Shown here in pieces: positions 1,464-57,878 of a DNA stretch of 64,000 bases. This DNA comes from Periplaneta americana (taxonomy: Eukaryota; Arthropoda; Insecta; Blattodea; Blattidae): the NCBI RefSeq assembly GCF_040183065.1, contig NW_027185534.1:62001-126000 (forward strand). The letters are read 5' to 3'. The notes under the pieces are model-generated. The model made no database searches, was not told the origin of the DNA, and saw nothing but the letters and a program-made list of their open reading frames with translations. The position numbers and the translations under genes were made by a program. How positions within the stretch are numbered: position 1 is the first letter of the stretch; every line of letters starts with the position of its first letter.

Positions 1464-1512
1464 TTGGAATGCTCCAAGCTTTCGACTGCTATCTCTGCAG
1501 CCATCTTCAGGG
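1464..1512 (-). other. Hammerhead-like fold in the Penelope 3' region (candidate)
   Basis: On the minus strand, CTGAAGA is followed by a GCTGC/GCAGT stem with a short loop, then CGAAA, then a TTGGA/TCCAA stem. This spacing resembles the CUGAUGA-stem II-GAAA-stem III core of a hammerhead ribozyme, and Penelope-like elements are known to carry such ribozymes in their terminal repeats. The core base that should be U is A here, and the cleavage-site triplet is not clear, so this copy is probably inactive if it is one at all. Confidence 0.3.
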
Positions 1513-1643
1513 AAGTGATGTCCGAACAGAAAGTCGAAAGGTTATATAGATGTGGCTGTCTCAGGTGAAACGGGATTGGTTGGCGGATCGGCCAATCCGG
1601 GGCCGGGAATTGTGATCGCTCGTAAGCTCCGCCCCTCTCGGGA

Positions 1644-5302: not shown

Positions 5303-5530
5303 TTTTTTCCGGTTTAATTATCACCATGCCCCATTACGCGTAATCATATTACGTGGTTTATTGAAACTTGTTTATAAATTTTGTGTTCATAGGTTTCCCA
5401 TTGTCTTTTGCTTCACTGTTTCGTGGTTTTGTTGATATTCATTATTGTGTTGTATTATTTAATGTTATTCACTGTTGAATGTTTTCTATCACTATCACTA
5501 TTTTTGAGTTAATTATACTTGTTCTATTTG

Positions 5531-5533
<3 letters not shown>

Positions 5534-5568
<35 letters not shown>
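5534..5568. repeat. (TA)n microsatellite in the LINE 3' UTR
   Basis: About 17 uninterrupted TA units. It lies in the roughly 500-bp non-coding 3' part of the LINE, between the poly(A) remnant and the ORF2 stop. The rest of that stretch is AT-rich, with repeated CACTATCA-like words, and I see no gene in it. Confidence 0.95.
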
Positions 5569-5572
<4 letters not shown>

Positions 5573-5818
5573 TTTTGGTAATTGGATCTTCACTATCACT
5601 CTCTTTCACTTAATGAAACTAATATCTTCACTATCATTCTCTTTCACTTATTGAAACTATTTCTATTTACACTATTTACATATATACACTTTAAGTAATT
5701 ATAACTATAGTGTTTATAATATATTGCTAATTGAGTGTGTTTACGCATGTTACGAAACTGAGACATATATTTACAATTGTTCAAAGTTTGTAGCTTTAAT
5801 ATAGTGCACAAATGACCT

Positions 5819-8347: not shown

Positions 8348-8348
8348 T

Positions 8349-13227: not shown

Positions 13228-13360
13228 CCCGTCTTAGCCCAAACTCATTACAGATGTACAAATTGTTTATTAATGATTAAATAATGTTTACTATAGCCTA
13301 TAGAAGTATTGTTTATTGAGAATTAATGGAAAATCATATTTACAAACGGACTGTAGATGT

Positions 13361-13383
13361 GTCACCTCTGGGTGACATTGGGC
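13361..13383. repeat. piggyBac subterminal palindrome, left
   Basis: GTCACCTCTGGGTGACATTG followed by GGC. It is an inverted repeat (GTCACC/GGTGAC) around four bases, and the same arms occur near the right end. It is probably a transposase-binding site. Confidence 0.7.
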
Positions 13384-13443
13384 AATAAATCTTATTGTCA
13401 CATTTAATGACTGCAATATCATATTTTATTCAGTGGTGAATAT

Positions 13444-14965
13444 TTAAGATAGCATATATGTAATAATACTACTGGATGGGACTGAATCGCTGGCTGGATG
13501 TCTGTATGGATCTTTCCCATAGAGACCACAACATACTTGCACGATATTTCGCCGGAATTCACAATATGTCAAGTCTTTTTGTATTGCATCTCTTCTTGAT
13601 ATTAACCACGCATTATGACAGGCTGCATCGAGATCAAATGCGAAATTAGGTACCACCATTTCGTTCCATGAAAGCTCACTTTCAAAGAATGAACATTTTC
13701 GTCAAATATATCTACTCCCAAGTATTTGATGTACTATTCAATAGCCAAAGGGCAATCCACTTGAATTTTGCTTCGTTTCCCTGCAATAGTACTGACTCGA
13801 TCTGCTTTCAAAATTGGAGTTACATTGAGTCAGTTTGAAGCAAGAGTGACAATATTATTATCATGCCATCGAACAACAGCATCATCCTGTGTCACAGCGA
13901 AAGATATTGCACCACGATTGCGCTTTTTCATGTGCTTAGCGAGGTAGCCAAGACGTGTAGCTGCTGACCATAGTTTATATCCAAAACGCATAAATATGAA
14001 TATGCTGATTGTCACTGTCTCCCATGATAGGGAACCATTGTTTCATGAATAGATTTGTGACTCCACCATATCTTTTCAAACTGTTGGCCAAAATTGCCAA
14101 TTAGAATCTCGAAGTATCTTCGGACTTTACCAAATTCATTATTAGGAGAAAGATTGAAATTGTCCGAAAGATGTAAATACTTATGGATTTCTGTAAACCT
14201 ACTTCTCCTCATGGTATTGGATACAAGTTCATTGTGTACATTTGATTTTGTTTCGCAAAACATTGTTATGCTTTGGGAAGACATGTAGCCCGTCAGTAAG
14301 GGAATGACAATGTAAACTTTTTATATAATTTTTGTCCAATTCAATAGAATGATTCCTTTGGAAGGCATACAATTTTGACATTTTACACATAACAGCGAGT
14401 ATTTCTTCACTGAACAGGAGCTCGAAACATTAGACAGGAGTAAGTTTTGATTCATTATAATCTGTAAATGTTTCATATACGTCGCCTCTTCCAGATTTAC
14501 AAGTAAAGATTTCTTCTTTGTCAGACCATTCTTTATTACGAAAAGAAATATTAGAAGTAGATTTTTTTTCTCTGCTGAAGTCTAATACTAGAAATAGATT
14601 GTATTTCATCGCGAGAAATGTTAGAATAACACTGTGTTCTTTCGTAGACCATAAATATTTCTTCCAAGTATATTCATATCTGATTCCGGTAGTTTGTTTT
14701 TGTCTGTTGAAACTCCAGTGTTTATTTCCTCAATATAAGAATTGGACATTGTTATCTCGTCAATTGTTGATAGTCTCGGGTTACTTCCTTCATAATTATC
14801 TATTAGTACGTCATTGGCAGAAGTAACGTTGACTTCAAATGTAGGTGAGAATTCTTCCTGGAAGATGATTGATGTCACTGGTTGTTTTGTCACCACGTTC
14901 CTCATCGATAACAGGTCCATCAGCCGGTGGAAATATGGTAATATCAATAACAGACGAAGCTCCAA
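13444..14965 (-). pseudogene. piggyBac transposase pseudogene (DDE_Tnp_1_7 type)
   Basis: The fragments run N to C from right to left. The N-terminal acidic region is in 14621-14965. Near 14300-14430 a stretch reads FSEEILAVMCKMSKLYA, typical of the start of the piggyBac catalytic domain. At 14012-14284, NTMRRSRFTEIHKYLHLSDN is followed by HETMVPYHGRQ. At 13830-14015, RFGYKLWSAATRLGYL corresponds to the family's K-P-x-R-x-G-x-K block. At 13444-13659, DAACHNAWLISRRD is the C-terminal motif. The pieces fall in three different frames (the first two in one frame, the third and fourth in two others), and there are several stops, so at least two frameshifts are needed to explain it. It cannot encode a working transposase. 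Confidence 0.88.
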
Positions 14966-15020
14966 CTGTATCTAACTATACTAATATAATGAGATCGGAC
15001 TTTGAATGTATCTGACCAAT

Positions 15021-15036
15021 GTCACCTGGAGGTGAC
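15021..15036. repeat. piggyBac subterminal palindrome, right internal
   Basis: GTCACCTGGAGGTGAC, a perfect palindrome arm pair matching the left copy; CCAAT lies just upstream, matching the ATTGG next to the left copy in opposite orientation. Confidence 0.7.
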
Positions 15037-15373
15037 ATGTCACTTTGTAGTCCCTATTTACACTATATGCAATTTTTTATTCGTTTTTGAATATTGCATA
15101 TAAAATATCAATAGTTTAGTAATGTATATATGGAAACAAAAATAAAACTACTTAAATCTTAGTACTATTTTCACAAGCCATTATGTGAAATGCGCACAAA
15201 GTTGAGATTCTTTTGCATCCACGCTGATGTTTTCTTCTCTACTGCTGCAGATTTAAGAGCTAGTCGCCAAAAATGATTGAAATTCAGTTACCAGATGTCT
15301 AATAAGGCATTGTCGACGGCGATTTACGTTTAAATATATTTATTGGTAATTTTGGACAGCCTGATAGGGAGCG

Positions 15374-15395
15374 CCACCTTTAGGTGACATTGGGA
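15374..15395. repeat. piggyBac subterminal palindrome, right terminal
   Basis: CCACCTTTAGGTGACATTGG, the copy nearest the right terminus. One base of the left arm has changed (GCCACC for GTCACC). Confidence 0.65.
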
Positions 15396-15408
15396 CATCA
15401 AGAGTTAA

Positions 15409-17383
15409 AATCTCCTAAAAACCAAATTTTTTATAAATTTGATCTGAGTGGAAAATCGAAACGAGTGTTGAAATGCGGTCTCATTGTGAATGTTAAACCC
15501 ATTCGGAAGTAATTAGCACTATCGGTTGGAATTTGTAGGTTTTATTAATGAATATACAAAAAAACGCATTTCTAGCTCGAGAAACGACGATTTTTCCACT
15601 TTAACCATTTACGCAACAAACTCACTTCTTTCCGGACGTGAACATGAATCTTTGGATAGAGATACGTGTTTCCACAAGAATTTGAAATTTTTTTAAGAAA
15701 CTAGAGAAATTGGATGGGATTTGTACACTTCATTCATGATTATATAGCTGAAAATCTCGCAAAAACCATATTTTTAGAGAAATTTTGCCTGAGTGGAAAA
15801 TCGAAACCAGTGATAAAATGCGGTCTCATTTTGAATGTTAAACCCATTCAGAAATAATTATCACTATCCGTTGGAATTTGTAGCTGTTATTAATATATAA
15901 GTATGAAAATACGCAGTTCTAGCTCGAGAAAAGACGATTTTTCCACTTTAACCATTTACACTAACAAACTCACTTCTTTCCGGACGCGAACATGCATCTT
16001 CAGATAGAGATCGGTGTGACCACAAGAATTTGACATTTCTTAAAGAAACTAGAGAAATCCGATGGGATTTGTAGATTTTATTCATGATTATATAACTTAA
16101 AATTTCGTAATAACCAAATTTTTTGAGAAATTTTGTTTGAGTGGAAAATCCAAACGAGTGATAAAATATGGTCTCATTGTAAATGTTAAACCCATTCAGA
16201 AGGAATTACCACGATCGTTTGGAATTTGTAGGTTTTATTAGTGTATATACAAAAAAACGCATTTCTAGCACGAGAAACGACGATTTTTCCACTTTAACGA
16301 ATTACACTAACAAACACACCTCTTTCTGGACGTGAACATCAATCTTTGGATAGAAATACGTGTTTCTACTACAATTTGACATTTTTGTTAAGAAACTAGA
16401 GAAATCGGATGGGATTTGTGAATTTTATTAATGATTATACACCTGAAAATCTCGCAAAAACCATATTTTTAGAGAAATTTTGCCTGAGTGGAAAATCGAA
16501 ACCAGTGATAAAACGCGGTCTCATTGTGAATGTTAAACCCATTCAGAAAGAATTTCCACAATCGGTTGCGATTTGTAGGTTTTATTAAAGTATATACGCT
16601 AAACGCATTTCTAGCTCGAGAAACGACGATTTTTCCACTTTAAAGATTTACACTAACAAATTCATATCTTTCTTGACGCGAACATCAATATTTGTATAGA
16701 AATAGGTGTGTCCACACGAATTTGACAATTTTTAAGAAACCAGAGAAATCCGATGGGATTTGTAGATTTTATTCATAATTATACAGCTTAAAACCTCGCA
16801 AAAAAACAAATTTTTAGAGAAATTTTGTATGAGTGGAAAATCGAAACGAGTGATAATATGCGGTCTCATTTTGAATGTTAAACCCATTCAGAAATAATTA
16901 TCACTATCCGTTGGAATTTGTAGCTTTCATTAATATATAAGTACGAAAAAACGCATTTCTAGCTCGAGAAACGACGATTTTTCCACTTTAACGATTTACA
17001 CTAACAAACTCACAACTCTGTGGACGTGAAAATGAATCTTTGGATAGAAATAGGTGTGTCCACAAGAATTTGACATTTTTTAAATAAACTAGAGAAATCC
17101 GATTGGATTTGTAGATTTTATTCATGATTATATAGGATATATCTTGTAAAAACCTAATTTTTCGAGAAATTTTGTTTGAGTGGAAAATCGAAACCAGTGA
17201 TAAAAAGCGTCTCGTTGTGAATATTAAACCCATTCAGAAAGAATTAGCACAATCGGTTGCAATATGAAGGTTTTATTAATGTATATACGAAAAAACGCTT
17301 TCTAGCTCCAGAAACGACGATTTTTCCACTTCAACCATTTACACAACAAACTCATATCTTTCTGGACGAGAGCATGAAACTTT
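15409..17383. repeat. Satellite array segment
   Basis: Between five and six monomers, resuming in phase after the TTAA duplication. The segment ends in GCATGAAACTT, where the small retroposon begins. No gene seen. Confidence 0.95.
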
Positions 17384-17764
17384 CATTCATTCATTCATTC
17401 ATTTATTGTATTCCATAGATCTTATATGAGCAATGAAGCTTTTTAGATGTGGAACATGTCAACATTTTACAATATTACAATTACAATTTTTACAAATTTT
17501 TATAGTTTTACAATTTAGTAAATTTCTACAATTTTTACAATGTTGTACAATTTTTTTACATTTTGGCGAGATGTAGTGAGATGAAATGAGGTCCGAGGAT
17601 TCGCCAAAATATTACCCGGCTAACTTAATAATTTAGCGGTTAAACTCCGTTTACATTTCTAATTTATATAGTTTAAAGATATCCAAAAAACTACATTTTC
17701 ACTGTAGAAATAAAGGAAACTTATATAAATATTATAAATACTTAAAGATTAAATAAATCTCATT
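17384..17764 (-). mobile_element. Small retroposon with (AATG)n tail
   Basis: A 380-bp insertion splits the monomer at GAACATGAA/TCTTTGG. On the minus strand it ends in AATAAATGAATGAATGAATG, a short-repeat tail like those of several LINE and SINE families, preceded by a low-complexity TTGTAAAAATTGTA tract. No tRNA-like A or B box was found at its 5' end (near 17764), so it is either a truncated LINE 3' end or a truncated SINE. A block at about 17563-17618 matches, in the same sense, part of the tRNA-SINE at 48321-48358. Target duplication is unclear. Confidence 0.7.
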
Positions 17765-20700
17765 AACATCTTTGGATAAAAATAGGTGTGTCCACACGAA
17801 TATGACATTTTTTAAGAAACTAGAGAAATCGGATGGGATTTGTAGATTTTATTCATAATTATACAGGTTAAAACCTCGCAAAAAACAAATTTTTAGAGAA
17901 ATTTTGTATGAGTGGAAAATCAAACCGAGTGATAAAAAGCGGTCCCATTCTGAATGTTAAACCAATTCCCAAAGAATTAGCACAATCCGATGGAATTTGT
18001 AGCTTTTATTATGTATATATGAAAAAAACGCATTTCTAGCTCGAGAAACGAAGATTTTTCCCACTTTGAAAATTTACACTAACAATCTCACCTCTCTCTG
18101 GAAGTGACCATGGACCTTTGGATAGAAATACGTGTGTCCACACGAATTTGACATTTTTTTAAGAAACTAGAGAAATCGGATGGGATTTGAAGAACTTATT
18201 CATGATTATATAGCTTAAAATCTCGCAAAAACAAAAGTTTAAGAGAAATTTTGTCTGGGTGGAAAATCGAAACGAGTGATAAAATGCTGTCTCATTGTGA
18301 ATGTTAAACCCAATCACAAAGAATTAGCTCAATCGGTTGGAATTTGTAGCTTTTATGAATATTTATATACGGAAAAACGCATTTCTAGCTCGAGAAACGA
18401 CGATTTTTTCACATTGACCATTTACAATAACATACTCACCACTCTCTGGACGCGAACATGAATCTTTGGATAGAAATAATTGTGACCACACGAATTTGAC
18501 ATTTTTTTAAGAAACTAGAGAAATCGGATAGGATTTGTAGATTTTATTCATGATTAAACCAAAAACCAAAGTATAAGAGAAATTTAGTCTGAGTGGAAAA
18601 ACGATACGAGTGATAAAAAGCGGTCTCATTGTGAATGTTAAACCCATTCAGAAAGAATTAGCACAATAGTTTGCAATTTGTAGGTTTTATTAATGTATAT
18701 CCAAAAAACGCATTTCTAGACGGAGAAACGACGACTTATTCACTTTGACAATTTACACTAACAAACTCACCTATCTCTGGACTTGAACATGAAACTTTGG
18801 ATAGAAATACGTGTGTCCACACGATTGTGACATTTTTTTTTTTAACTAGAGTAATCGGATGGGATTTGTAGTTTTAATTCATGATTATAAATAGCTAAAA
18901 ATCTCGCAAAAACCAAAGTTTAAGAGATATTTTGTCTGAGTGCAAAATTGAAACGAGTGATAAAATGCGGTCTCATTGTGAATGTTAAACCCATTCAGAA
19001 AGAATTAGCACAATCGGTTGGAATTTGCAGGTTTTATTAATGTACATACAAAAAACGCATTTCTATCTCGAGAAACAACGATTTTTTCACTTTAATCATT
19101 TACACTAACAAACACAGCTCTTTCTGAATGCGAACCTAAATCTTTCGATAGAAATACGTGTTCCCACACGAATTTGACATTTTTTTAACAATCTAGAGAA
19201 ATCGGATCGGATTTTTTTTTTATTCGTGATTATATAGCTGAAAATCTCGCAAAAACCATATACTTAGAGAAATTTTGCTAGAGTGGAAAATCCAAACCAA
19301 TGATAAAAAGCGGTCTCATTGTGAATGTTAAACCCATTCAGAAATAATTAGCACAATGGGTTGGAATTTGTAGGTTTTATTAATGAATATAAGGAAAAAC
19401 TCATTTCTAGCTCGAGAAATGAAGATTTTTCCACTTTGACCATTTACACAAACATAGTCACTTCTCTCTGGACGCGAACATGAATCTTTGCATAGAAATA
19501 CGTGTGTCCACACGAATTTGACATTTTTTTAAGAAACTAGAGTAATCGGATGGGATTTGTGTATTTTATTCATGATTATATAGCTTAAAATCTCGCAAAA
19601 ACCAAAGTTTAAGAGAAATTTTGTCAGAGTGGAAAATCGAAACCAGTGATAAAAAGCGGTCTCATTGTGAATGTTACACCCATTCAGAAGGAATTTCCAC
19701 AATCGGTTGCAATTTGTAGGTTTTATTAAAGTATATACGCAAAAACGCATTTCTAGCTCGAGAAACGAAGATTTTTCCACTTTGACCATTTACAATAATA
19801 TACTCATTTCACTCTGGACGCGAACATGAATTTTTGCATAGAAATACGTGTGTCCACACGAATTTGACATTTTTTTAAGAAACTAGAGTAATCGGATGGG
19901 ATTTGTATATTTTATTCATGATTATATAGCTTAAAATCTCTCAAAAACCAAAGTTTAAGAGAAATTTTGTCTGAGTGGAAAATCGAAACGAGTGATATTA
20001 TGCGGTCTCATTTTGAATGTTAACCCATTCAGAAAGAATTACCACTATCGGTTGGAATTTGAAGGTTTTATTAATGTATTTAAGATAAAACGCATTTCTA
20101 GCTCGAGAAACGAAGATTTTTCCACTTAATCGATTTACACTAACAAACTCATATTTTTCTGGACGCGAAAATGAACCTTTGGATAGAAATAGGCGTGTCC
20201 ACACGAATTCGACATTTTTTGAAGAAACTAGAGAAATCCGACGGGATTTGTAGATATTATTCATAATTATATAGCTTAAACTCTCGAAAAAAAAAAAAAA
20301 AAAAAACAAATTTTTAGAGAAATTTTGTACGAGTGGAAAATCGAGACGAGTGATAAAAACGGTCTCGTTGTGAATGTTAAACCCATTCAGAAAGATATAG
20401 CACAATCGGTTGCAATTTGTACTTTTATTAATGTATATACGAAAAAACGCATTTCTAGCTCGAGAAACGACGATTTTTCCACTTTAACGATTTACACTAA
20501 CAAACTCATATCTTTCCGGACGCGAACATGAATCTTTGGATAGAAATAGATGTGTCCACACGAATTTGACATTTTTTGATGAAACTAGAGAAATCCGATG
20601 CGATTTGTAGATTTTATTCATATTTATATAGCTTTAAATCTCGCAAAAACCAAAGTATAAGAGAAATTTAGTCAGAGTGGAAAATCGAAATGAGTGATAA

Positions 20701-22414
20701 AATGCGGTCTCATTGTGAATATTAAACCCATTCAGAAGGAATTAGCACAATCGTTTGGAATTTGTAGTTTTTATTATTGTATATACAAAAAAACGCAATT
20801 CTAACTTGAGAAACGATGATTTTTCCATTTTAACGATTTACACTAAAAAACTCAGAGATCTTTCTGGACGCGAACATGAATCATTTAATAGAAATACTTG
20901 TGTCCACACGAATTTGACATTTTTTGAAGAAACTAGAGAAATCGGACGGGATTTGTAGATATTATTCATAATTATATAGCTTAAAATCTCGCAAAAAAAA
21001 AACAAATTTTAGAGAAATTTTGTGGTTATGGAAAATCGAGACGAGTCATAAAAACGGTCTCGTTGTGAAAGTTAAACCCATTCAGAAAGAATTAGCACAA
21101 TCGGTTGCAATTTGTACTTTTAATAACGTATATACAAAAAACCGCATTTCTAGCTCGAGAAACGACGATTTTTCCACTTAAACTATTTACACTATCAAAC
21201 CCATATCTTTCTGGACGCGAACATGAATCTTTGGATAAAATAGGTATGTGCTCACGAATTTGACATTTTTTGGAGAAACTAGAGGAATCCGATGGGATTT
21301 GTAGATTTTATTCATAATTATATAGCTTAAAATCTCGCAATAAAACAAATTTTTAGAGAAATTTTGTATTAGGGGAAAATCGAAACGAGTGATAAAAAGC
21401 GGTCACGTTGTGAATGTTAAACCCATTCAGAAGGAATTACCACTATCGTTTGGTTTTTGTAGGTTTTATTAGTGTATTACTAAAAAACGCATTTCCAGCA
21501 CGAGAAACGAAGATTTTTCCACTTTAACGTTTTACACTAACAAATTCATATCATTCTTGACTCGAACATTAATCTTTGTTTAGAAGTAGGTGTGTCCACA
21601 CGAATTTGATATTTTTTTAAGAAACTAGAGAAATCCGATGGGATTTGCAGCTTTTATTCATAATTATAGAGCTTAAAATCTCGCAAAAAGACAAATATTT
21701 AGAGAAAATTTATATGAGTTAAAAATCGAAACGAGTGATAAAAAGCGGTCTCATTGTGAATGTTTAACCCATTCAGAAAGAATTAGCACAATCGTTTGGA
21801 ATTTGTAGGTTTTATTAATGTATATAAGATAAAACGCATTTCTGACTGGAGAAACGACGAATTTTCCACTAACAAAGTCATATCTTTCTCGAGGCGAACA
21901 TGACTCTTTGGATAGAAATAGGTGTGTCCACACGAATTTGACATTTTTTGAAGAAACTAGAGAAATCCGACGGGATTTGTAGATATTATTCATAATTATA
22001 TAGCTTAAACTCTCGCAAAAAAAAACAAATTTTTAGAGAAATTTTGTATGAGTGGAAAATCGAGACGAGTGATAAAAACGGTCTCGTTGTGAATGTTAAA
22101 CCCATTCAGAAGGAATTAGCACAATCGCTTGGAATTTGTAGGTTTTATTAATGTATATACAAAAAAAACGCATTTCAAACTCGAGAAACGACGATTTTTC
22201 CACTGTAACGATTTACACTAACAAACTCATATCTTTCTGGCCGCGAGCATGAATCTTTGGATAGAAATAGGTGTGCCCAAACGAATTTGACATTTTTTTT
22301 AAGAAACTAGAGAAATCCGCTGTGATTTGTAGGTTTTATTCATAATTATGTAGTTTAAAATCTCGCAAAATATCAAATTTTTAGAGAAATTTTGTATGAA
22401 TGGAAAATCGAAAC
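17765..22414. repeat. Satellite array segment
   Basis: About thirteen monomers. From 20962 onward the sequence belongs to the large direct duplication whose second copy starts near 53520. The A-tract of the monomer at about 20285-20306 is expanded to roughly 20 A. The segment ends at TCGAAAC, where the long-TIR transposon begins. No gene seen. Confidence 0.95.
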
Positions 22415-22550
22415 AGTAGATAAGAAATGATGCCTACGTCACAGGTGTAAGGGTGTAAGTTAGGTGTTAGGGGGCGTGGGAAGTGACGTCATTGTGGGCG
22501 TGGCCAAAGTATTACATCAGAAGTGGGCGGGGCCAAAGTATGGCGTCATG
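22415..22550 (+). repeat. 136-bp terminal inverted repeat, left (copy A)
   Basis: It pairs base for base with 27201-27336. It contains CTACGTCACAGGTGTAAGG, AAGTGACGTCATTGTGGGCG and two GGGCG(T/G)GGCCAAAGTAT blocks. Confidence 0.95.
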
Positions 22551-22696
22551 GGATGAATTTAATCTGGGTAATAATGTATGGCTTAAATTAAATACACTAA
22601 TATTTATTTTGATGTACCGAAGTACATATGATATTTCCATGCAGATATTCTGCTTTCTCAGATGATGAGAGAGAGATGGAAAGGAGAAAAATTCTC

Positions 22697-22767
22697 TCCG
22701 GCGCCGGGATTTGAACCCGGGTTTTCAGCTCTCCGTGCTGGTGCTTTAACCACTAAGCCACGCCGGA
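22697..22767 (-). tRNA. tRNA-like SINE head (left arm, copy A)
   Basis: A 71-nt sequence folds as a cloverleaf: acceptor TCCGGCG/CGCCGGA, D stem GCTT/AAGC, anticodon stem CCAGC/GCTGA with one mismatch, loop ACGGAGA (GGA in the anticodon position, but C instead of U at 33), and T arm CCGGG-TTCAAAT-CCCGG. A box TGGCTTAGTGG and B box GGTTCAAATCC look intact. It is probably the tRNA-derived promoter of a SINE rather than a working tRNA gene, since it has no normal serine variable arm and sits in a repeat. Confidence 0.6.
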
Positions 22768-23312
22768 TACAATCCCGACACCGTTGAGAATCGTCTCTGA
22801 TTAAGCTCCATCTCTTGGGTTCCCTCTAGTGGCCGCCCTCTGCACTACGTTATAGATGTCTATGCACGCAGGACCGAAGTCCATACATGTGTAGAGGTGC
22901 ACTCAGATGAGTGACTGGTTGGCCGGGGTCCGACGGTATGCGCGCCGTCTTTAAATCACAAAGTGATTTATTACGCATATCATATTTATTTTGATGTACC
23001 GAAGTACATATGATATTTCCATCTCTCTCTCATCATCTGAGAAAGCAGAATATCTGCATGGAAATATCATATGTACTTCGGTACATCAAAATAAATATGA
23101 TATGCGTAATAAATCACTTTGTGATTTAAAGACGGCGCCCATACCGTCGGACCCCGGCCAACCAGTCACTCATCTGAGTGCACCTCTACACATGTATGGA
23201 CTTCGGTCCTGCGTGCATAGACATCTATAACGTAGTGCAGAGGGCGGCCACTAGAGGGAACCCAAGAGATGGAGCTTAATCAGAGACGATTCTCAACGGT
23301 GTCGGGATTGTA

Positions 23313-23383
23313 TCCGGCGTGGCTTAGTGGTTAAAGCATCATCACGGAGAGCTGAAAACCCGGGTTCAAATCCCGGCGCCGGA
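23313..23383 (+). tRNA. tRNA-like SINE head (right arm, copy A)
   Basis: The mirror copy of the left-arm head on the opposite strand. Acceptor, D and T stems are perfect; the anticodon stem is TCATC/GCTGA with one mismatch at a different position from the left arm. Pol III A and B boxes are intact. It is likewise best read as a SINE head. Confidence 0.6.
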
Positions 23384-24528
23384 GAGAATTTTTCTCCGTT
23401 CCATCTCTCTCTCATCATAAATACACTAAACAATCCACTCAAAATGTATTACTTCTTCAATTTTGGTGAAAACATTATCACAATTGGGATTCACTAACTG
23501 AAAATATATTTCAATACTCAGTGCATTGTATTTCTTTTTATGAATAAATATATACGCATAATTTTACGTTGTTACTATTTTCTTTTACCAAGCACATCCC
23601 CATCCTCAATGACTAGATTCAGTTTAATCATTGACATTCCCTCAATCATCCTCAGGTTTTATCATACAATCATGTAATGAATCCACCACTCCCAAATCAA
23701 TAAGCTACCACTGGAATTATGTTATATTCTGGTAACATATATGTTTAGAATAATCTCAACTTATACACCAATTCTTAAGGATTATTAATATTTGAAAACC
23801 TATATACCAATTCTTAATATTGGAAAAGGATTTCTAATATTTGAAAGGAAAGTGTTATAGGTTAATTCTCTAAACGAACCCAACCCTTTGGTTATGTGGG
23901 ATGGAAATGGATGGTTAAGACATAGAAGAAATTACAGTGCAAATCTATTTCCAAAAAGAACATTTATTACAATTCGAACATTCTTCATAATCAAGCTTAA
24001 CATTCACCACGCTTCATCATGGTCACTGTTTTTTACACTCAGAGCATTTAAATTGTGCGATTTCTTCTTCTTCAGCTCAAACCGAGACTGGAGATGCAGC
24101 ATCATCTAAATTAAAATTAAAAATAAATATTGTGAGACATTATTAACGCTATGGCTGCTATTACGCTACCAAATTTTTTTGACATAGATCTTTTATAAAA
24201 TATGTAATAGTGTAATAGTTGTGTAAATTCGAGCGTATTATTCATCATCTTGCCCCCCCTCCCACTGCTGTCTAAACTTGTTCAATGTCAATTATTCCAA
24301 ACTGCAATACTTCTTTCATTACACTTCTAAATAATTCACCTCATCATCCAGCCATATTACCTCCAAGGTCATTATAAAAAACATGTTTTTTATCATTACT
24401 CAGTAATTTCATCGTCGGATGTGACATTGCATAATATTTGCACACATAGCAGATAGCTATTATTTACTTGTAATCAATACAATATTTGTGTAACATAAGA
24501 CGCTGAGAGAACAATCGCCGGATGTTTG

Positions 24529-25321
24529 CATCATGCAATATTTGTGTAATATAACACGTTCCAGATGCTTCAGAAACATATTTTTATCATTACTCAGCAA
24601 TTGCATCGTCGCCGGAAGTGATTCAGCAAGCTTGCATAATATTTGCACACTTATACATATGTAATAACATATACATCTACATTGATTTATCTGCTACAAT
24701 TACTGCTCTAAATCATAATAATGTCACATTCTGATGAATTTAATGTTGGTAATAATGTATTAAATACGCTAAACAAACTACTCAATTTTACTTCAAAATG
24801 TATTACATTGGAATAATAATAATATGAGAAGAATGTATGTGTTTAATTTACAAGTGTGCTAGATTAATTTTTTTATCAATTGGCTTAAAGTACAACCATT
24901 TACGCCATCAATAATTCCCCCATTCCAATTTCAATTAACACTTGCGAATTTCCCTTACCCATTACTATTTATCAATTAAATTACTATTACATTAGAATTT
25001 TATCACATTCCCCCCCCCCATTTCCAACTTCAATTACAAATTTATAACATCACACTTTAAGTTATGACGTATGTATTTCAAATTATAAACAGCCATCACC
25101 CATTTCCAACTTCAATTACAAATTTATAACGTCACACTTTAATCTTCTTTATGACGAATAATAATAATAATGAGAAGAAGAAGAAGAAGCAATTGCTATA
25201 TTACGAACAGCTTCGGTAATAATGTATGGCATAAAATAAATCCAATAAATGTTACTTCAAAGTGTATTAAATTATTAATCAATCCAATAAATGTTACTTC
25301 AAAATGTATTAAATTGGAACC

Positions 25322-25379
<58 letters not shown>

Positions 25380-26420
25380 GGTGGCCATTATTCAGCACTT
25401 GCGTCTTCACCGGATTTGAATTAACAGCTTGCATATTATAAGCATCATGCAATATTTGTGTAATATGACACGTTGCAGATGCTTCAAAAACATGCTTTTA
25501 TCATTACTCAGCAATTGCATCGTCGCCGGAAGTGATTAAGCAAGCTTGCATAATATTTGCACGCTTCAACATATACATCTACATTGATTTATCTGCCACA
25601 ATTACTGCTCTAAATCATAATAATGTCACATTCTGATGAATTTAATGTTGGTAATGATGTATTAAATACGCTAAACAAACCACTCAAAATGTATTACTTT
25701 GGAATAATATGAGAAGAATGTATGTGTTTAATTTACAAGTGTGCTAGATTAATTTTTTTTATAAATTGGCTTAAAGTACAACCATTTACACCATCATAAT
25801 TCCCGCATTCCAATTTCCATTTCCCATTACTATTTATCAATTCAATTACCAGTACATTAGAATCTTAATATTTTTTATCAATTACTCAACAATTGGCTTA
25901 AAGTACAACCAGTTTCAGGACATCCATTGGACAGCTGGCCATTATTCAGCACTTGCGTCTTCACCGGATGTGAATTAACAGCTTGCATATTATTTGCATC
26001 ATGCAATATTTGTGTAATATGACACGTTGCAAGTGCTTAAAAAACATGATTTTATCATTACTCAGCAATTGCATCGTCGCCGGAAGTGATTCAGCAAGCT
26101 TGCATAATATTTGCACACTTATGCATTACACAACATATACATCTACGTTGATTTATCTGCTACAATTACTGTATTACGAAATAATAATGTCACATTCTGA
26201 ATGTTGGTAATAATGTATTAAATACGCTAAACAAACCACTCAAAATGTATTACACTAGAATAATGTGAGAAGAAAGTATATGTTTAATTTACAAGTGTGC
26301 TAGATTATTTTTTTTTATAAATTGGCTTAAAGTACAACCATTTACGCCATCAATAATTCCCCCATTCCAATTTCCATTTCCCATTACTATTTATCAATTC
26401 AATTACCAGTACATTAGAAT
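24529..26420 (+). repeat. Three copies of an internal AT-rich repeat (copy A transposon)
   Basis: A block starting CATCATGCAATATTTGTGTA and running through GCATCGTCGCCGGAAGTGAT, ATTTATCTGC and GGCTTAAAGTACAACCA begins at 24529, 25443 and 25997. The last two are a near-tandem pair about 555 bp apart; the first is 914 bp upstream. No reading frame is shared. CACTTGCGTCTTCACCGGAT precedes the last two copies. Confidence 0.85.
25322..25379. repeat. (ATA)n microsatellite, copy A
   Basis: About 19 trinucleotide units. The matching run in the duplicate (57879-57939) is one unit longer. Confidence 0.95.
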
Positions 26421-27200
26421 CTTAATATTTTTTATCAATTACTCAGCAATTGGCTTAAAGTACAACCAATAAAATTAGCAACCTTGCATAATATTTGCAC
26501 ACATAGCAGATAGTGATTATTTTAACATTCACAACTCACTTTCAAAAATACAAACATGTATCAACTTGTCTATTCCCCCTCCCCACTATACAAACTTGCA
26601 TGAACATGTGCATTTCAAATTATTACATTTCCAACTTCAATTAAAAATTTATGACGCCACACTTTAAGTTATGCCGTTCGTATTTCAAATTTTTACCCCC
26701 CCTCCCCCATTTCCAACTTCAATTACAAATTTATAACGTCACTTCAGCCACATCCTGTTTAATTTACAAGTGTGCTAGATTAATTTTTTATCCATTTATG
26801 TCCCACATTCCAACACCCATTCCCCAATCAATTAAATTACCATTACATTAGAATCTTAAGAAAAAGAATGTATGTGTTTATGTGTGATAGATTAATTCTT
26901 CGCCGGATGTGACCTTGCATAATATTTGCACACATAGCAGTTTTCAAACATGTATGAACTTGTGTCTTTCACCTGAGAACAATTGCCGGATATGACTCAG
27001 CATTATATTTGCACACATAGCAACATTGATGAGATAAACATGTATGAACTTGTCATACCACAACTTCAATTACATACCTGCATGACGTCACACTTTAACC
27101 TTGAACGCTTATGACGTAATTTAAGTTACGCCCCATTCCTACGTCATACTTTAAGCCCGCCACCCCCTCCGTGCTGTCATACTTTAAGCCCCGCCCCCTT

Positions 27201-27336
27201 CATGACGCCATACTTTGGCCCCGCCCACTTCTGACGTAATACTTTGGCCACGCCCACAATGACGTCACTTGCCACGCCCCCTAACACCTAGCTTACATCC
27301 TTACACCTGTGACGTAAGCATTATTTCTTATCTACT
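27201..27336 (-). repeat. 136-bp terminal inverted repeat, right (copy A)
   Basis: Inverse complement of 22415-22550 with about six substitutions and no gap. Just inside it, from about 27138, two more ATACTTTAAGCCC units continue a degenerate subterminal repeat of roughly 30 bp. Confidence 0.95.
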
Positions 27337-30300
27337 AAAAAACGACTGATAAAAAGCGGTCACATTGTGAATGATAAACCCATTCTGAAAGAATTAGCAC
27401 AATCCGTTGGAATTTGCAGCTTTTATTAATGTCTATACGGAAAAATGCATTTCTAGCTCGAGAAACGACGATTTTTCCACTTTAACCATTTACACTAACA
27501 AACTTAGACATTTCTGGACGCCAACATGAATCTTTGGATAGAAATACGTGTGTCCAAACGAATTTGACACTTTTTAAGAAACTAGAGAAATCCGATGGGA
27601 TTTGTAGATTTTATTTTTGATTATATAGCTTAAAATCACGCAAAGAAATAAATTTTTAGAGAAATTTTGTATGAGTGGAAAAAAGAAACGAGTGATAAAA
27701 TGTGGTCTCATTGTGAATGTTAAACACATTCAGAAGGAATTAGCACAATCGCTTGGAATTTGTAGGTTTTATTAATGTCAACAAATTATTAGAGATATTT
27801 TGTATTAATTGAAAATCGAAACGAGTGATAAAAAGCGGTCTCATTGAGAATGTTAAACCCATTCTGGAAGAATTACTACAATCGGTTGCAATTTGCAGGG
27901 TTTATTAAAGTATTTACGCAATAACGCATTTCTAGCTCAAGAAACGACGATTTTTCCACTTTAACGATTTACACTAAAAAACTCATATCTTTCTTGAAGC
28001 GAACATCAATCTTTGTATAGAAATATGTCTATCCACATGAATTTTACATTTTTTTAAGAAACTAGAGAAATCCGATGGGATTTGTAGATTTTATTCTTAA
28101 TTATATAGCTTTAAATCTCTCAAAAAGACAAATATTTAGAGAAATTTTGTATGAGTAGAAAATCGAAACGAGTGATAACAAGCGGTCTCATTGTGAATGT
28201 TAAACCCATTCTGGAAAGAAGTAGCACAATCGTTTGGAATTTGTAGGTTTTATTAATGTATATACGAAAAAACGCATTTCTAGCTCGAGAAACGATGATT
28301 TTTCGACTCTGACAATTTACACTAACAAACTCACCTCTCTCTGGACGTGAACATGAATCTTTAGATAGAAATAGCTGTGTCCACACCAATTTGACATTTT
28401 TTTAAGAAACTAGAGAAATCGGATAGTATTTGCAGATATTACTCATGATTATATAGAGTAAATCTTCGCGAAAACCAAAGTATAAGAGAAATTTGTCTGA
28501 GTGGAAAATCGAAACGAGTGATAAAATGCCGTCTCATTTTGAATGTTAAAGCCATTCAGAAAGAATTAGCACAATCGGTTGGAATTTGTAGCTTCTATTA
28601 ATGTATATACGAAAAAACGCTTTTCAAGCTCGAGAAACGACGAATTTCCACTTTAACAATTAACACTAATATACTCACCTTTCTCTGGACGCGAACATGA
28701 ATCTTTGGATAGAAATACGTGCGTCCACAGCAATTTGACATTTTTTTAAGAAACTAGAGAATTCGGATAGGATTTGTAGATTTATTCATGATTAAATACC
28801 TTAAAATCTCGCAAAAACCCAAGTATAAGGGAAATTTAGTCCCAGTGCAAAATCGAAACGAATGATAGAATGTGGTCTCATTGTGAATGTTAAACCCATT
28901 CAGAAGGAATTAACACAATCGTTTGGAATTTGTAGGTTTTATTATTATATATACTAAAAAACGCATATCTAACTCGAGAAACAACGATTTTTCCACTTTA
29001 ACAATTTACACTAACAATCTCACATCTCTCTGGACGTGGACATGAATCTTTGGATAGTAAGAAGTGTGCCCAAAAGATTATGACATTTTTTTTAAGAAAC
29101 TAGAGAAATCAGCTGGGATTTGTATAACTTAATCATACTTATATAGCTTAAAATCTCGCAAAAAAGAACAAATTTTTAGAGAAATTTTGTGTGAGTGGAA
29201 AATCAAAAACGAGTGATAAAATGAGGTCTCATTGTGAATGTTAACCCCATCCAGAAGGAATTAGCACAATAATATGGAATTTGAAGGTTTTATTAATGTA
29301 TATAGAAAAAAACGCATTTCTAGCTCGACAAAACGACGATTTATCCACTTCGACAATTTACACTATCAAACTCACCTCTCTCTGGACGCGAACATGATTC
29401 TTTGGATAGAAATACGTGTGTCCACAAGAATGTGAAATATTTTAAAAACAAGAGTAATAGGATGGCATTTGTAGGTTTTATTCATGATTATATAGCTTAA
29501 AATCTCCCAAAAACCGAAGTTTAAAAAATTTTGTCATAGTGCAAAATTCAACCGAGTGATAAAATGCGGTCTCTTTGTGAATGTTAATCCCTTTCAGAAA
29601 GAATTAGCACAATCGGTTGGAATTTGCAGGTTTTATTAATGTACATACAAAAAACGCATTTCTAGCTCGAGAAACGACGATTTTTTCACTTTAATCATTT
29701 ACACTAACAAACACAGCTCTTTCTGGATGCTAACCTGAATCTTTTGGATAGAAATACGTGTGTCCACACGAATTTGATATTTTTTTAAGAAACTAGAGAA
29801 ATCCGCTGGGATTTGTAGATTTTATTCATAATTATATAGTTTAAAATCTCGCAAAAAAAAAAAACAAAAAAAACAAAAAATTAGTGTTAATTTGTATGAG
29901 TGGAAAATCGAAACGTGTGATAAAATGTGGTCTCAATGTGAATGTTAAACCCATTCAGAAGGAATTAGCACAATCGTTTGGAATTTGTAGGTTTTAATAA
30001 TGTATATACAAAACAACGCATTTCTACCTCCACAAACGGCGATTTTTCCACTTTAACGATTTACACTAACAAACTCAGAACATTCTAGACGCGAACATGA
30101 AACTTTGGATAGAAATAGGTGTGTCCAGACGAATTTGACATTTTTTGAAGAAACTAGAGAAATCCGACGGGATTTGCAGATATTATTCATAATTATATAG
30201 CTTAAAAACTTGCCAAAAAACAAATTTTTAGAGAAATTTTGAATGAGTGGAAAATCGAGACGAGTGATAAAAAGCGGTCACATTGTGAATGTTAAACCCA

Positions 30301-33300
30301 TTCAGAAAGAATTAGCACAATCGGTTGCAATTTGTACTTTTATTAATGTATATACGAAAAAACGCAATTCTAGCTCGAGAAACGAAGATTTTTCCACTTT
30401 AACGATTTACACTAACAAACTCATATCTGACTTGAGGCGAACATACATTTTTGTATAGAAATAGGTGTGTCCACACGAATTTGACATTTTTTTAAAAAAC
30501 TAGAGATATCCGATGCGATTTGCAGATTTTATTTTTGATTATATAGCTTAAAATCTCGCAAAAAAACAAATATTTAGAGAAATTTTGTATGAGTGGAAAA
30601 TCGAGACGAGTCATAAAAAGCGGTCACTTTGTTAATGTTAAACCCATTCGGAAAGAATTAGCACAAGCGGTTGCAATTTGTGATTTTATTAATGTATATG
30701 CGAAAAAACGCAATTCTAGCTCGAGAAACGACGATTTTTCCACTCTAACGAATTACACTAACAAACACACCACTTTCTGGACGTGAACATCAATCCTTCG
30801 ATAGAAATACGTGTTTCCACACGAATGTGACATTTTTTTTTTAAATCTAGAGAAATCGGATGGGATTTGTAGATTTTTCATGATTATATAGATAAAAATC
30901 TCGCAAAAACCAAATTTTTAGAGAAATTTTGCCAGAGTGGAAAATCCAAACCAGTGATAAAAAGCGATCTCATTGTGAATGTTAAACCCATTTAGAAAGA
31001 ATTAGCGCAATCTCTTGGAATTTGTATGTTTTGTTAATCTATATACGAAAAAACGCATTTCTAGCTCGAGAATCGACGATTTTTCAACTTTAACGATTTA
31101 CACTAACAAACTCATATCTTTCTGGACACGAACATGAATCTTTGGAGAGAATTAGATGTGACTTCACGAATTTGACATTTTTTGAAGAAACTAGAGTAAT
31201 CCGATGGGATTTGTAGAAATTATTCATAATTATATAGCTTAAAATCTCGCAAAAAACAAAGTATAAGAGAAATTTAGTCTGAGTAGAAAATCGAAACGAG
31301 TGATAAAATGCGGTCTCATTGTGAATGTTAAACCCATTCAGAAGGAATTAGCTCAAACGTTTGGAATTTGTAGGTTTTAAAATTATACATACAAAAAAAC
31401 GCATTTCTATCTCGAGAAACGACGATTTTTACACTTTAACGAATTACACTAACAAACTCAGATCTTTCTGGACGTCAACATGAATCTTTTAATAGAAAAA
31501 CGTGTGTCCACACGAATTTGACATTGTTTTAGTAGACTAGAGATATCCGATGGGATTTGTAGATTTTATTTTTTATTATATAGCTTAAAACCTCACAAAG
31601 AAACGAAATTTTAGAGATATTTTGTATGAGTGGAAAATCTATACGACTGATAAAATGTGGTCTCATTGTGAATGTTAAACCCATTCAGAAGGAATTAGCA
31701 CAATACTTTGGCATTTGTACGTTTTATGAATGTATATACAAAAAAAACCCAATTCTCACTCGAGAAACGACGATATTTCCAATTTCACGAATACACTAAC
31801 AAACACACCTCTTTGTGGACGTGAACTTCAATCTTTGGATAGAAATACGTGTTTCCACACGAATTTGACATTTTTTAAAGAAACTAGAGAAATCGGATTG
31901 GATTTGTAGATTTTATTCATGGTTATATAGCTTAAAATCTCACAAATAAAAAATTCTCAGACTAATTTTGTCTGAGTGGAAAATCGAAACCAGTGATAAA
32001 AAGCGGTCTCATTGTGAATGTTAAACCCATTCAGAAAGAATTAGCACAATCTGATGGAATTTGTATGTTTTGTTAATCTATATACGAAAAAACGCATTTC
32101 TATCTATGTTTTGTTAATCTATATACGAAAAAACGCATTTCTATCTCTAGAATAGACGATTTTTCAACTTTAACGATTTACACAAACAAACTCATATCTT
32201 TCTGGACGCCAACATGAACCTTTGGATAGAAATAGGTGTGTCCACACGGATTTCACATTTTTTGAAGAAACTAGAGAAATCCGATGGGATTTGTAGATTT
32301 TAATCATAATTATATAGCTCAAAATCTCGCAAAATTACAAATTATTAGAGATATTTTTTATGAGTGGAAAATCTAAACGAGTGATTAAATGTGGTCTCAT
32401 TGTGAATGTTAAACCCATTCAGAAGGAATTAGCACAATCGTTTGGAATTTGTAAGTTTTATTAATGTATATACAAAAAAACGCATTTCTACCCCGACAAA
32501 CGGCGATTTTTCCACTTTAACGAATTACACTAACAAACACACCTCTTTCTGGAAGTGAACATCATTCTTTGTATAGAAATACGTGTTTCCACTCGAATTT
32601 GAGATTTTTTTAAGAAACTTGGGAAATCGGATGGGATATGTAGATTTTATTCTTGATCATATATCTAAAAATTTCGCAAAAATCAAATTTCTACAGAAAT
32701 TGTGTCAGAGTGGAAAATCGAAACCAGTGATAAAAAGCTGTCTCACTCTAAATGTTAAACCCATTCAGAAAGAATTAGCACAATCGTTTGGTATGTATAG
32801 GTTATATTAATATATATACGAAAAAACGCATTTCTACCTCGAGAAACGACGATTTTCCACTTTAACGATTTACACTAACAAACTCATATCTTTCTGGACG
32901 CGAACGTGAACCTTTGGATAAACATAGGTGTGTCCACACGAATTTGACAATTTTTGAAGAAACTAGAGAAATCCGACGGGATTTGTAGATATTATTCATT
33001 ATTATATAGCTTAAAATCTCGCAAAGAAACAAATATGTATAGAAATTTCGTATGAGTGGAAAATCGAGACGAGTGATAAAAAGCGGTCTCATTGTGAATG
33101 TTAAACTCATTCAGAAAGAATTAGCATAATCGGTTGCAATTTGTTCTTTTATTAATGTATATACGAAAATACGCATTTCTAGATCGAGAATGACGATTTT
33201 TCCACTTTAACGATTTACACTAACAAACTCATATATTTCTGGACAAGAACATGTATCTTTGGATATAAATAGATGTGTCCTCACGAATTTGACATGTTTG

Positions 33301-55108: not shown

Positions 55109-55254
55109 GGATGAATTTAATCTGGGTAATAATGTATGGCTTAAATTAAATACACTAATATTTATTTTGATGTACCGAAGTACATATGATATTTCCATGC
55201 AGATATTCTGCTTTCTCAGATGATGAGAGAGAGATGGAAAGGAGAAAAATTCTC

Positions 55255-55325
55255 TCCGGCGCCGGGATTTGAACCCGGGTTTTCAGCTCTCCGTGCTGGT
55301 GCTTTAACCACTAAGCCACGCCGGA
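55255..55325 (-). tRNA. tRNA-like SINE head (left arm, copy B)
   Basis: Identical to the head at 22697-22767: intact cloverleaf apart from one anticodon-stem mismatch, A and B boxes present. Probably a SINE head, not a tRNA gene. Confidence 0.6.
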
Positions 55326-55870
55326 TACAATCCCGACACCGTTGAGAATCGTCTCTGATTAAGCTCCATCTCTTGGGTTCCCTCTAGTGGCCGCCCTCTG
55401 CACTACGTTATAGATGTCTATGCACGCAGGACCGAAGTCCATACATGTGTAGAGGTGCACTCAGATGAGTGACTGGTTGGCCGGGGTCCGACGGTATGCG
55501 CGCCGTCTTTAAATCACAAAGTGATTTATTACGCATATCATATTTATTTTGATGTACCGAAGTACATATGATATTTCCATCTCTCTCTCATCATCTGAGA
55601 AAGCAGAATATCTGCATGGAAATATCATATGTACTTCGGTACATCAAAATAAATATGATATGCGTAATAAATCACTTTGTGATTTAAAGACGGCGCCCAT
55701 ACCGTCGGACCCCGGCCAACCAGTCACTCATCTGAGTGCACCTCTACACATGTATGGACTTCGGTCCTGCGTGCATAGACATCTATAACGTAGTGCAGAG
55801 GGCGGCCACTAGAGGGAACCCAAGAGATGGAGCTTAATCAGAGACGATTCTCAACGGTGTCGGGATTGTA

Positions 55871-55941
55871 TCCGGCGTGGCTTAGTGGTTAAAGCATCAT
55901 CACGGAGAGCTGAAAACCCGGGTTCAAATCCCGGCGCCGGA
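55871..55941 (+). tRNA. tRNA-like SINE head (right arm, copy B)
   Basis: Identical to the head at 23313-23383, on the strand opposite to its partner in the same palindrome. Confidence 0.6.
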
Positions 55942-57878
55942 GAGAATTTTTCTCCGTTCCATCTCTCTCTCATCATAAATACACTAAACAATCCACTCAA
56001 AATGTATTACTTCTTCAATTTTGGTGAAAACATTATCACAATTGGGATTCACTAACTGAAAATATATTTCAATACTCAGTGCATTGTATTTCTTTTTATG
56101 AATAAATATATACGCATAATTTTACGTTGTTACTATTTTCTTTTACCAAGCACATCCCCATCCTCAATGACTAGATTCAGTTTAATCATTGACATTCCCT
56201 CAATCATCCTCAGGTTTTATCATACAATCATGTAATGAATCCACCACTCCCAAATCAATAAGCTACCACTGGAATTATGTTATATTCTGGTAACATATAT
56301 GTTTAGAATAATCTCAACTTATACACCAATTCTTAAGGATTATTAATATTTGAAAACCTATATACCAATTCTTAATATTGGAAAAGGATTTCTAATATTT
56401 GAAAGGAAAGTGTTATAGGTTAATTCTCTAAACGAACCCAACCCTTTGGTTATGTGGGATGGAAATGGATGGTTAAGACATAGAAGAAATTACAGTGCAA
56501 ATCTATTTCCAAAAAGAACATTTATTACAATTCGAACATTCTTCATAATCAAGCTTAACATTCACCACGCTTCATCATGGTCACTGTTTTTTACACTCAG
56601 AGCATTTAAATTGTGCGATTTCTTCTTCTTCAGCTCAAACCGAGACTGGAGATGCAGCATCATCTAAATTAAAATTAAAAATAAATATTGTGAGACATTA
56701 TTAACGCTATGGCTGCTATTACGCTACCAAATTTTTTTGACATAGATCTTTTATAAAATATGTAATAGTGTAATAGTTGTGTAAATTCGAGCGTATTATT
56801 CATCATCTTGCCCCCCCTCCCACTGCTGTCTAAACTTGTTCAATGTCAATTATTCCAAACTGCAATACTTCTTTCATTACACTTCTAAATAATTCACCTC
56901 ATCATCCAGCCATATTACCTCCAAGGTCATTATAAAAAACATGTTTTTTATCATTACTCAGTAATTTCATCGTCGGATGTGACATTGCATAATATTTGCA
57001 CACATAGCAGATAGCTATTATTTACTTGTAATCAATACAATATTTGTGTAACATAAGACGCTGAGAGAACAATCGCCGGATGTTTGCATCATGCAATATT
57101 TGTGTAATATAACACGTTCCAGATGCTTCAGAAACATATTTTTATCATTACTCAGCAATTGCATCGTCGCCGGAAGTGATTCAGCAAGCTTGCATAATAT
57201 TTGCACACTTATACATATGTAATAACATATACATCTACATTGATTTATCTGCTACAATTACTGCTCTAAATCATAATAATGTCACATTCTGATGAATTTA
57301 ATGTTGGTAATAATGTATTAAATACGCTAAACAAACTACTCAATTTTACTTCAAAATGTATTACATTGGAATAATAATAATATGAGAAGAATGTATGTGT
57401 TTAATTTACAAGTGTGCTAGATTAATTTTTTTATCAATTGGCTTAAAGTACAACCATTTACGCCATCAATAATTCCCCCATTCCAATTTCAATTAACACT
57501 TGCGAATTTCCCTTACCCATTACTATTTATCAATTAAATTACTATTACATTAGAATTTTATCACATTCCCCCCCCCATTTCCAACTTCAATTACAAATTT
57601 ATAACATCACACTTTAAGTTATGACGTATGTATTTCAAATTATAAACAGCCATCACCCATTTCCAACTTCAATTACAAATTTATAACGTCACACTTTAAT
57701 CTTCTTTATGACGAATAATAATAATAATGAGAAGAAGAAGAAGAAGCAATTGCTATATTACGAACAGCTTCGGTAATAATGTATGGCATAAAATAAATCC
57801 AATAAATGTTACTTCAAAGTGTATTAAATTATTAATCAATCCAATAAATGTTACTTCAAAATGTATTAAATTGGAACC

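What the first reader, a model, noticed from the sequence alone, without database searches (positions are those of the whole stretch)
22601..23418. Near-perfect 757-bp palindrome made of two inverted tRNA-SINE units
Arms of 361 bp pair with no gap and only about four mismatches around a 35-bp spacer, and each arm has an intact Pol III A and B box facing away from the centre. The whole has a single 11-bp target duplication, so it inserted as one inverted dimer. A read-through transcript would form a very long hairpin, a natural source of dsRNA and small RNAs. Long palindromes are usually unstable, yet this one is found twice.
Basis: partly seen in the sequence, partly recalled or inferred. Interest (0 to 1): 0.75.

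Follow-up and report, generated by a model that had tools for sequence, protein, structure and literature searches.

The report
Twin-primed palindrome of a tRNA-bearing retrocopy
A near-perfect DNA palindrome in what looks like an animal genome is most likely one insertion in which both cut ends of the chromosome were extended at once on a repeated or circular tRNA-containing RNA, so it would record how a fold-back repeat can be born.

Summary
The palindrome is real: 361-nt arms (22662-23022 / 23058-23418), 4 mismatches, 35-nt spacer, one 11-12-nt target duplication, uninterrupted related sites nearby. The interpretation needs changing. (1) "Found twice" is one insertion: the second copy shares flanks and target duplication inside a segmental duplication. 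(2) These are not ordinary SINEs: the tRNA-like parts point outward with TTTTT just behind them, and the body lies upstream. (3) It is not a plain inverted dimer. Each half is slightly more than one lap (423 and 403 nt) of one 382-nt unit, starting 62 nt apart; laps wrap by 41 and 20 nt and meet at a 6-7-nt microhomology. Both halves read as antisense cDNA running inward from the target: the signature of twin priming on a tandem, circular or end-jumped RNA. A purified Penelope-like protein extends both target strands from internal RNA sites (PMC11167929, abstract and passages), and a head-to-head Penelope-like fragment lies in this window. No known ribozyme was found. No genome was held, so family status is untested. 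Mechanism inferred, confidence 0.65.

The parts
22601..23417 (.). whole insertion (817 bp), bounded by the target duplication
22589..22600 (+). left target duplication TAAATACACTAA (11-12 nt)
   Evidence: family D4
23418..23429 (+). right target duplication TAAATACACTAA
   Evidence: family D4
22600..23022 (-). left half: 382-nt unit plus 41-nt exact wrap (22600-22640 = 22982-23022); inferred RNA-sense is the minus strand; first base shared with the target duplication
23016..23418 (+). right half: same 382-nt unit from phase 62, 20-nt exact wrap (23017-23036 = 23399-23418); inferred RNA-sense is the plus strand; 4 mismatches to the unit defined by the left half
22662..23022 (.). left arm of palindrome
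   Evidence: (I1)
23058..23418 (.). right arm of palindrome
   Evidence: (I1)
23016..23022 (.). 6-7-nt microhomology where the two halves join (TTTCCAT / ATGGAAA)
   Evidence: 359 of 145,924 simulated joins reach 6 or more and 128 reach 7
22696..22767 (-). tRNA-like, called tRNA-Ser(GGA), 72 nt, outward facing; TTTTT at 22691-22687 behind it
   Evidence: (60.5 bits)
23313..23384 (+). tRNA-like, called tRNA-Ser(GGA), outward facing; TTTTT at 23389-23393
   Evidence: (55.7 bits)
55159..55975 (.). second copy of the insertion inside a segmental duplication

Best explanation
One retrotransposition event. An endonuclease cut both strands of an AT-rich site, staggered by 11-12 nt. Each exposed 3' end primed reverse transcription of the same RNA species: a 382-nt tRNA-bearing unit present end to end (tandem transcript or circle). 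The two antisense cDNAs ran 423 and 403 nt, each more than one lap, then paired at a 6-7-nt complementarity and were filled in, leaving a palindrome whose RNA-sense strands both point outward. This is twin priming. A Penelope-like element is the favoured helper because one such protein is known to cut and extend both strands, to start internally without homology to the target, and comes from tandemly organised copies; a LINE with twin priming is the alternative. Shown: anatomy, phases, wraps, microhomology, target duplication, uninterrupted related sites. Inferred: the reverse transcription, the tandem or circular template, the helper.
For: The left half defines the unit and wraps it by 41 exact nt; the right half fits the same circle at phase 62 with 4 mismatches over 403 nt. 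Target duplication and related sites without the insert. Junction microhomology of 7 nt (6 if the variant base is not counted): 128 and 359 of 145,924 simulated joins reach this. Both halves are antisense from the target inward, and the RNA-sense strand so defined is also the sense strand of the tRNA-like part and carries both C(UUCG)G hairpins (sequence). An 8-bp stem runs across the unit boundary in the circular fold, as expected if the unit was continuous there. The bottom-strand cut site reads ATTT/AA, near the TTTT/AA that L1 endonuclease prefers; in a HeLa assay quoted there 17 of 17 inverted L1 insertions had 10-17-bp target duplications, and microhomology is reported at inversion junctions (passages of PMC2912911). 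The PLE protein PAc cleaves and extends both strands, starts internally at two adjacent sites not homologous to the target, prefers AT-rich DNA, and its copies are organised in tandem (PMC11167929, abstract and passages). A PLE-like fragment in the window has its RT part on plus (2322-3176) and a GIY...YIG-bearing part on minus (1644-2342), head to head, sense outward on both sides.
Against: No second independent insertion and no monomeric copy is in the window (unit against the rest: only 17-nt matches at E 6.0), so the 382-nt unit is known from this one event. Two cDNAs each exceeding one lap is unusual for twin priming, and in the human/chimp L1 system inversion is rare for RNAs copied in trans: one inverted Alu, 4 of 477 SVA. 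In PAc the start sites are adjacent and the same on both strands, in an AC-rich stem loop; here they lie 62 nt apart, and whether they fall in such a loop was not tested. Cutting the unit at the wrap boundary does not worsen its linear fold (rank 178 of 382), so the fold does not prove circularity. No hammerhead or other ribozyme was found. The helper is not identified; the second part of the PLE fragment was not recognised by Pfam, its GIY...YIG reading is by eye, two separate PLE insertions are not excluded, and its target duplication could not be resolved in satellite.
Confidence: 0.65

Rival explanations
1. An established fold-back family: the inverted form arose once and now moves as a unit (by DNA or RNA), and this is one of many copies with the same ends.
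For: It inserted as one block with a target duplication. No genome was held to count copies.
Against: Its two ends are not inverted repeats of each other: the left end extends 62 nt past the palindrome, so no terminal-inverted-repeat DNA transposon end is visible. An RNA of this form would fold at -750.8 kcal/mol, a poor template (inference).
Confidence: 0.18
2. Same event but from monomeric linear RNAs (3' end at phase 0, 5' end at phase 381), with the reverse transcriptase jumping from the 5' end of one RNA to the 3' end of another in both halves.
For: Template jumping is proposed from work on the non-LTR family R2 (PMC2912911 passages). The left cDNA would start exactly at the RNA 3' end. 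The unit cut at this point folds no worse than at other points.
Against: Both halves would need the same clean jump with no added or lost bases, and an 8-bp stem runs across the supposed RNA end.
Confidence: 0.12
3. Ordinary inserted tandem copy followed by inversion of its right half, or replication-based inverted duplication.
For: The right half could be the flipped continuation of a tandem copy (phases).
Against: One inversion breakpoint would have to fall exactly at the edge of the target duplication. An inverted duplication would include flank sequence, and the inverted pairing stops at the element.
Confidence: 0.03
4. Assembly or chimera artefact.
For: Palindromes are common chimera products (general knowledge).
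Against: Flanks are not inverted, a target duplication is present, the halves are offset by 62 nt with wraps, and the same structure recurs in a duplicate with its own flank substitution.
Confidence: 0.02

Closest known systems
Twin priming (5'-inverted L1 and other LINE-mediated insertions)
   Same: Two cDNAs primed from both target ends on one RNA species, sense strands outward, microhomology at the inversion junction, target duplication of about 10-17 bp (PMC2912911 passages)
   Different: Both cDNAs here cover a whole 382-nt unit and more, giving a near-perfect palindrome instead of two different parts of one RNA
Penelope-like elements (PAc in vitro system)
   Same: Extension of both strands, internal starts not homologous to the target, tandem organisation, AT-rich target (PMC11167929 abstract and passages)
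   Different: No RT or GIY-YIG frame of 150 aa or more in the insertion; no hammerhead motif found; start sites 62 nt apart; no demonstrated link to a PLE
Non-LTR retrozymes of animals
   Same: Short tandem units (150-450 bp), target duplications longer than 4 bp when present, non-autonomous (PMC7229834 passages)
   Different: No hammerhead ribozyme found here; carries a tRNA-like part; halves inverted
tRNA-derived SINEs
   Same: Good tRNA-like part with A and B boxes; target duplication
   Different: Stop signal directly behind the tRNA, body upstream, no 3' tail seen
Helenus (TRIM with tRNA-like sequence in its LTR)
   Same: tRNA-like part in a repeated terminal unit (PMC10886601 abstract and section 3.3)
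   Different: Helenus makes 4-5-bp target duplications and has two LTRs with PBS and PPT between; here 11-12 bp and inverted halves

Membership tests
tRNA-derived SINE | internal Pol III A and B boxes | tested here: met
   both arms; cmscan tRNA 60.5 and 55.7 bits
tRNA-derived SINE | promoter at the 5' end of a body that the same promoter transcribes | tested here: not met
   TTTTT starts at the fifth base past the ARAGORN tRNA end in each arm; it is the only T4+ run in the sense unit. By sequence only; transcription was not measured
tRNA-derived SINE | many dispersed monomeric copies | not testable with these tools
   no genome held; none in the rest of the window
Non-LTR retrozyme | hammerhead ribozyme in each unit | tested here: not met
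   no CTGANGA core on either strand of the circular unit, and none with one mismatch plus a helix II and GAAA; no ribozyme among 26 Rfam matches at E up to 5
Non-LTR retrozyme | end-to-end short unit (150-450 nt) and target duplication over 4 bp | tested here: met
   382-nt unit with wraps; 11-12 nt
Non-LTR retrozyme | low GC content (paper gives under 45% and under 50%) | tested here: inconclusive
   unit GC 47.9%; limits from passages
Non-LTR retrozyme | expressed as a circular RNA | not testable with these tools
   no RNA data
Twin-primed insertion (process) | two segments with RNA-sense strands pointing outward inside one target duplication | tested here: met
Twin-primed insertion (process) | microhomology at the inversion junction | tested here: met
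   6-7 nt
Penelope-like element | RT and GIY-YIG coding region | tested here: not met
   no ORF of 150 aa or more is listed in 22601-23417; shorter frames were not listed
Fold-back DNA transposon | inverted repeats reaching both ends | tested here: not met
   left end extends 62 nt beyond the inverted repeat
Helenus TRIM | 4-5-bp target duplication, direct LTRs | tested here: not met
   11-12 nt; halves inverted

The most novel reading that the evidence does not exclude
The 382-nt unit is a circular, highly folded, tRNA-tipped RNA that has no known ribozyme and is retrocopied by a Penelope-like enzyme priming from both target strands: a ribozyme-less counterpart of retrozymes whose insertions are fold-back palindromes from birth.
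Probability: 0.2. Interest if true: 0.75.

Novelty: new variant of a known kind. Interest (0 to 1): 0.45.

Why it matters
Fold-back repeats are usually put down to DNA transposons or rearrangement (general knowledge). This locus gives base-level evidence for a one-step RNA route, in which both cut ends are copied on an end-to-end repeated RNA. If a Penelope-like enzyme did it, this would be a genomic counterpart to the both-strand, internally started synthesis shown in vitro for one such protein (PMC11167929). The template's form, tandem or circle, is directly testable by RNA sequencing.

Tried and rejected
Own-genome search: no genome held. A looser tRNA pattern found 2 viral contigs (L001, L002) with clusters of tRNA genes (20 and 21 calls); the matching genes are called tRNA-Asp; dropped as unrelated. 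Literature search for six sequence strings of the unit and satellite: 0 papers. Searches on inverted SINE palindromes, twin priming with palindromes, PLE with inverted copies and inverted dimers (all 4, 15, 6, 1 and 1 papers listed; 15 of 550 listed; 20 of 388 listed) showed no title or abstract start describing such an object; four papers were opened (PMC10886601, PMC7229834, PMC11167929, PMC2912911), none in full. Search for the 347-bp satellite (15 of 68 listed) did not name the species. Rfam microRNA matches at the centre fall below their gathering scores and reflect a perfect hairpin. Target-duplication chance control: 63 of 200,000 random position pairs show an 11-nt match; satellite repeats probably inflate this. 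The joined-flank search also gave a weak fifth hit at 47931-47958 (E 0.003), not counted. The Penelope copy's own target duplication was looked at in satellite flanks and left unresolved.

Full report
Observation. The palindrome is present as described: arms 22662-23022 and 23058-23418 (361 nt, 4 mismatches at 22682, 22738, 22741 and 22941 of the left arm, 35-nt spacer). The insertion is 22601-23417, flanked by TAAATACACTAA, 11 or 12 nt depending on one ambiguous base. Four related stretches just downstream (24733-24785, 25215-25269, 25635-25699, 26200-26253), each also present in the duplicate block, align across the joined flanks with no insert, at 77-81% identity and with one gap each. So it came in as one block.

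Found twice means duplicated, not inserted twice. The copy at 55159-55975 has the same flanks and the same target duplication, with 1 mismatch in 1301 bp, and that mismatch, at 22471, is in the flank. It lies in a segmental duplication (18419-31441 against 50970-64000); 17 of 27 chunks of 500 bp are 98.6% or more identical, and the other 10 lie in 345-347-bp satellite arrays.

Finer anatomy. The left half (22600-23022, 423 nt) is a 382-nt unit followed by an exact repeat of its first 41 nt. The right half (minus strand from 23418 to 23016, 403 nt) fits the same unit treated as a circle, starting at phase 62, with 4 mismatches, and wraps by 20 exact nt. The halves meet at TTTCCAT / ATGGAAA, a 7-nt complementarity between two places of the unit (6 nt if the base at phase 82, which differs in the right half's first lap, is not counted). 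Of 145,924 simulated joins of this unit, 359 reach 6 nt and 128 reach 7. Each half shares only one base with the target at its start.

Which strand was the RNA. If each half is cDNA primed from its target end, the RNA-sense strand is minus on the left and plus on the right. That strand is also the sense strand of both tRNA-like parts and carries two C(UUCG)G hairpins (sequence). The unit as a circle folds better than dinucleotide shuffles (z -5.6 sense, -4.8 antisense, 100 shuffles each). An 8-bp stem crosses the wrap boundary, which favours a continuous template there. Against this, a linear unit cut at the boundary folds no worse than average (rank 178 of 382), so circularity is not shown.

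Not a SINE in the usual sense. A and B boxes are intact, but TTTTT starts at the fifth base past the called tRNA end in each arm, and most of the other 300 or so nt lie upstream of the tRNA in each half. The called anticodon is GGA (Ser), but the 72-nt tRNA lacks the long variable arm typical of tRNA-Ser (general knowledge). The sequence before the tRNA resembles an inverted copy of its 3' part and flank (local score 18.5; maximum of 500 mononucleotide shuffles 15.5). No hammerhead core occurs on either strand of the unit, and no ribozyme is among the 26 Rfam matches at E up to 5. HDV-like ribozymes outside Rfam were not tested.

Mechanism. Two cDNAs, each antisense and starting at opposite target ends, joined at short complementarity inside a target duplication of 11-12 nt, is the twin-priming picture (PMC2912911 passages). 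What is unusual is that each cDNA exceeds one unit length, which needs an RNA with units end to end, a circle, or repeated template jumps. On a single linear tandem RNA the phases fit a template of about 743 or 847 nt, depending on which end was primed first (arithmetic). The Penelope-like protein PAc cuts and extends both strands, starts internally at two adjacent sites without homology to the target, favours AT-rich DNA, and its copies are organised in tandem (PMC11167929 abstract and passages). These properties would yield this kind of structure. In the same window a Penelope-like fragment shows the same outward head-to-head layout: RT on plus (RVT_1, 50.7 bits), and on minus a part with a GIY...YIG motif read by eye and not recognised by Pfam. 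That is supporting, not proof.

Results against. No helper is identified, and an APE-type LINE (cut site ATTT/AA) remains possible. In the human/chimp L1 system, inversion is rare for RNAs copied in trans: one inverted Alu and 4 of 477 SVA insertions. PAc starts at adjacent sites in an AC-rich stem loop, the same for both strands, whereas here the starts are 62 nt apart. The unit is known from one event only.

dsRNA. The whole folds at -750.8 kcal/mol (20 shuffles, mean -232.4). Both internal promoters point outward and meet T5, so only outside transcription would be expected to make the hairpin. No RNA data were available.

Setting. The insertion sits about 190 bp inside the left end of a roughly 4.9-kb block (about 22415-27336) with 136-bp inverted ends (130 of 136 identical), itself interrupting satellite; no open frame of 90 aa or more was printed for it. 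The window also has a jockey/R1-like LINE (name recalled; RVT_1 hits) and a piggyBac-type fragment (family name recalled; DDE_Tnp_1_7). These point to an animal, probably an arthropod (inference); the species was not identified.

Limits. One event, one locus, no genome, no reads. The unit has no other match in the window beyond 17-nt hits at E 6.0. Whether 382 nt is the natural unit, and whether inverted copies recur, is untested.

Noticed in passing
about 1394-3160: Penelope-like fragment inside satellite with RT on plus (2322-3176) and a GIY...YIG-bearing part on minus (1644-2342), head to head: looks like an inverted, twin-primed PLE insertion. The RT match stops at profile position 179 of 205.
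   Followed up: partly
about 22415-27336 (duplicate about 54973-59896): Roughly 4.9-kb block with 136-bp inverted ends (130/136) starting AGTAGATAAGAAAT, carrying GTGGGCGTGGCC-type short repeats; probably a non-autonomous DNA transposon in the satellite and host of the palindrome.
   Followed up: partly
18419-31441 and 50970-64000: Segmental duplication, 98.6-100% identical in all 16 chunks from 20919 to 28918 of the first copy.
   Followed up: yes
4-1393, 3161-5302, 8349-22423, 27780-47775, 49311-54981: Long arrays of a 345-347-bp AT-rich satellite, with interruptions; about 83% identical between shifted copies.
   Followed up: partly
13228-15403: Degenerate piggyBac-type transposase fragment (DDE_Tnp_1_7, E 9.8e-12 for 14012-14320 minus) interrupting satellite.
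   Followed up: partly
5304-8348: Broken jockey/R1-like LINE (name recalled) on the minus strand in at least three open pieces, interrupting satellite.
   Followed up: no
23243-23262 and mirror in left arm: GGCGGCCACTAGAGGGAACC resembles the CTCF core motif (recalled from memory, not tested).
   Followed up: no
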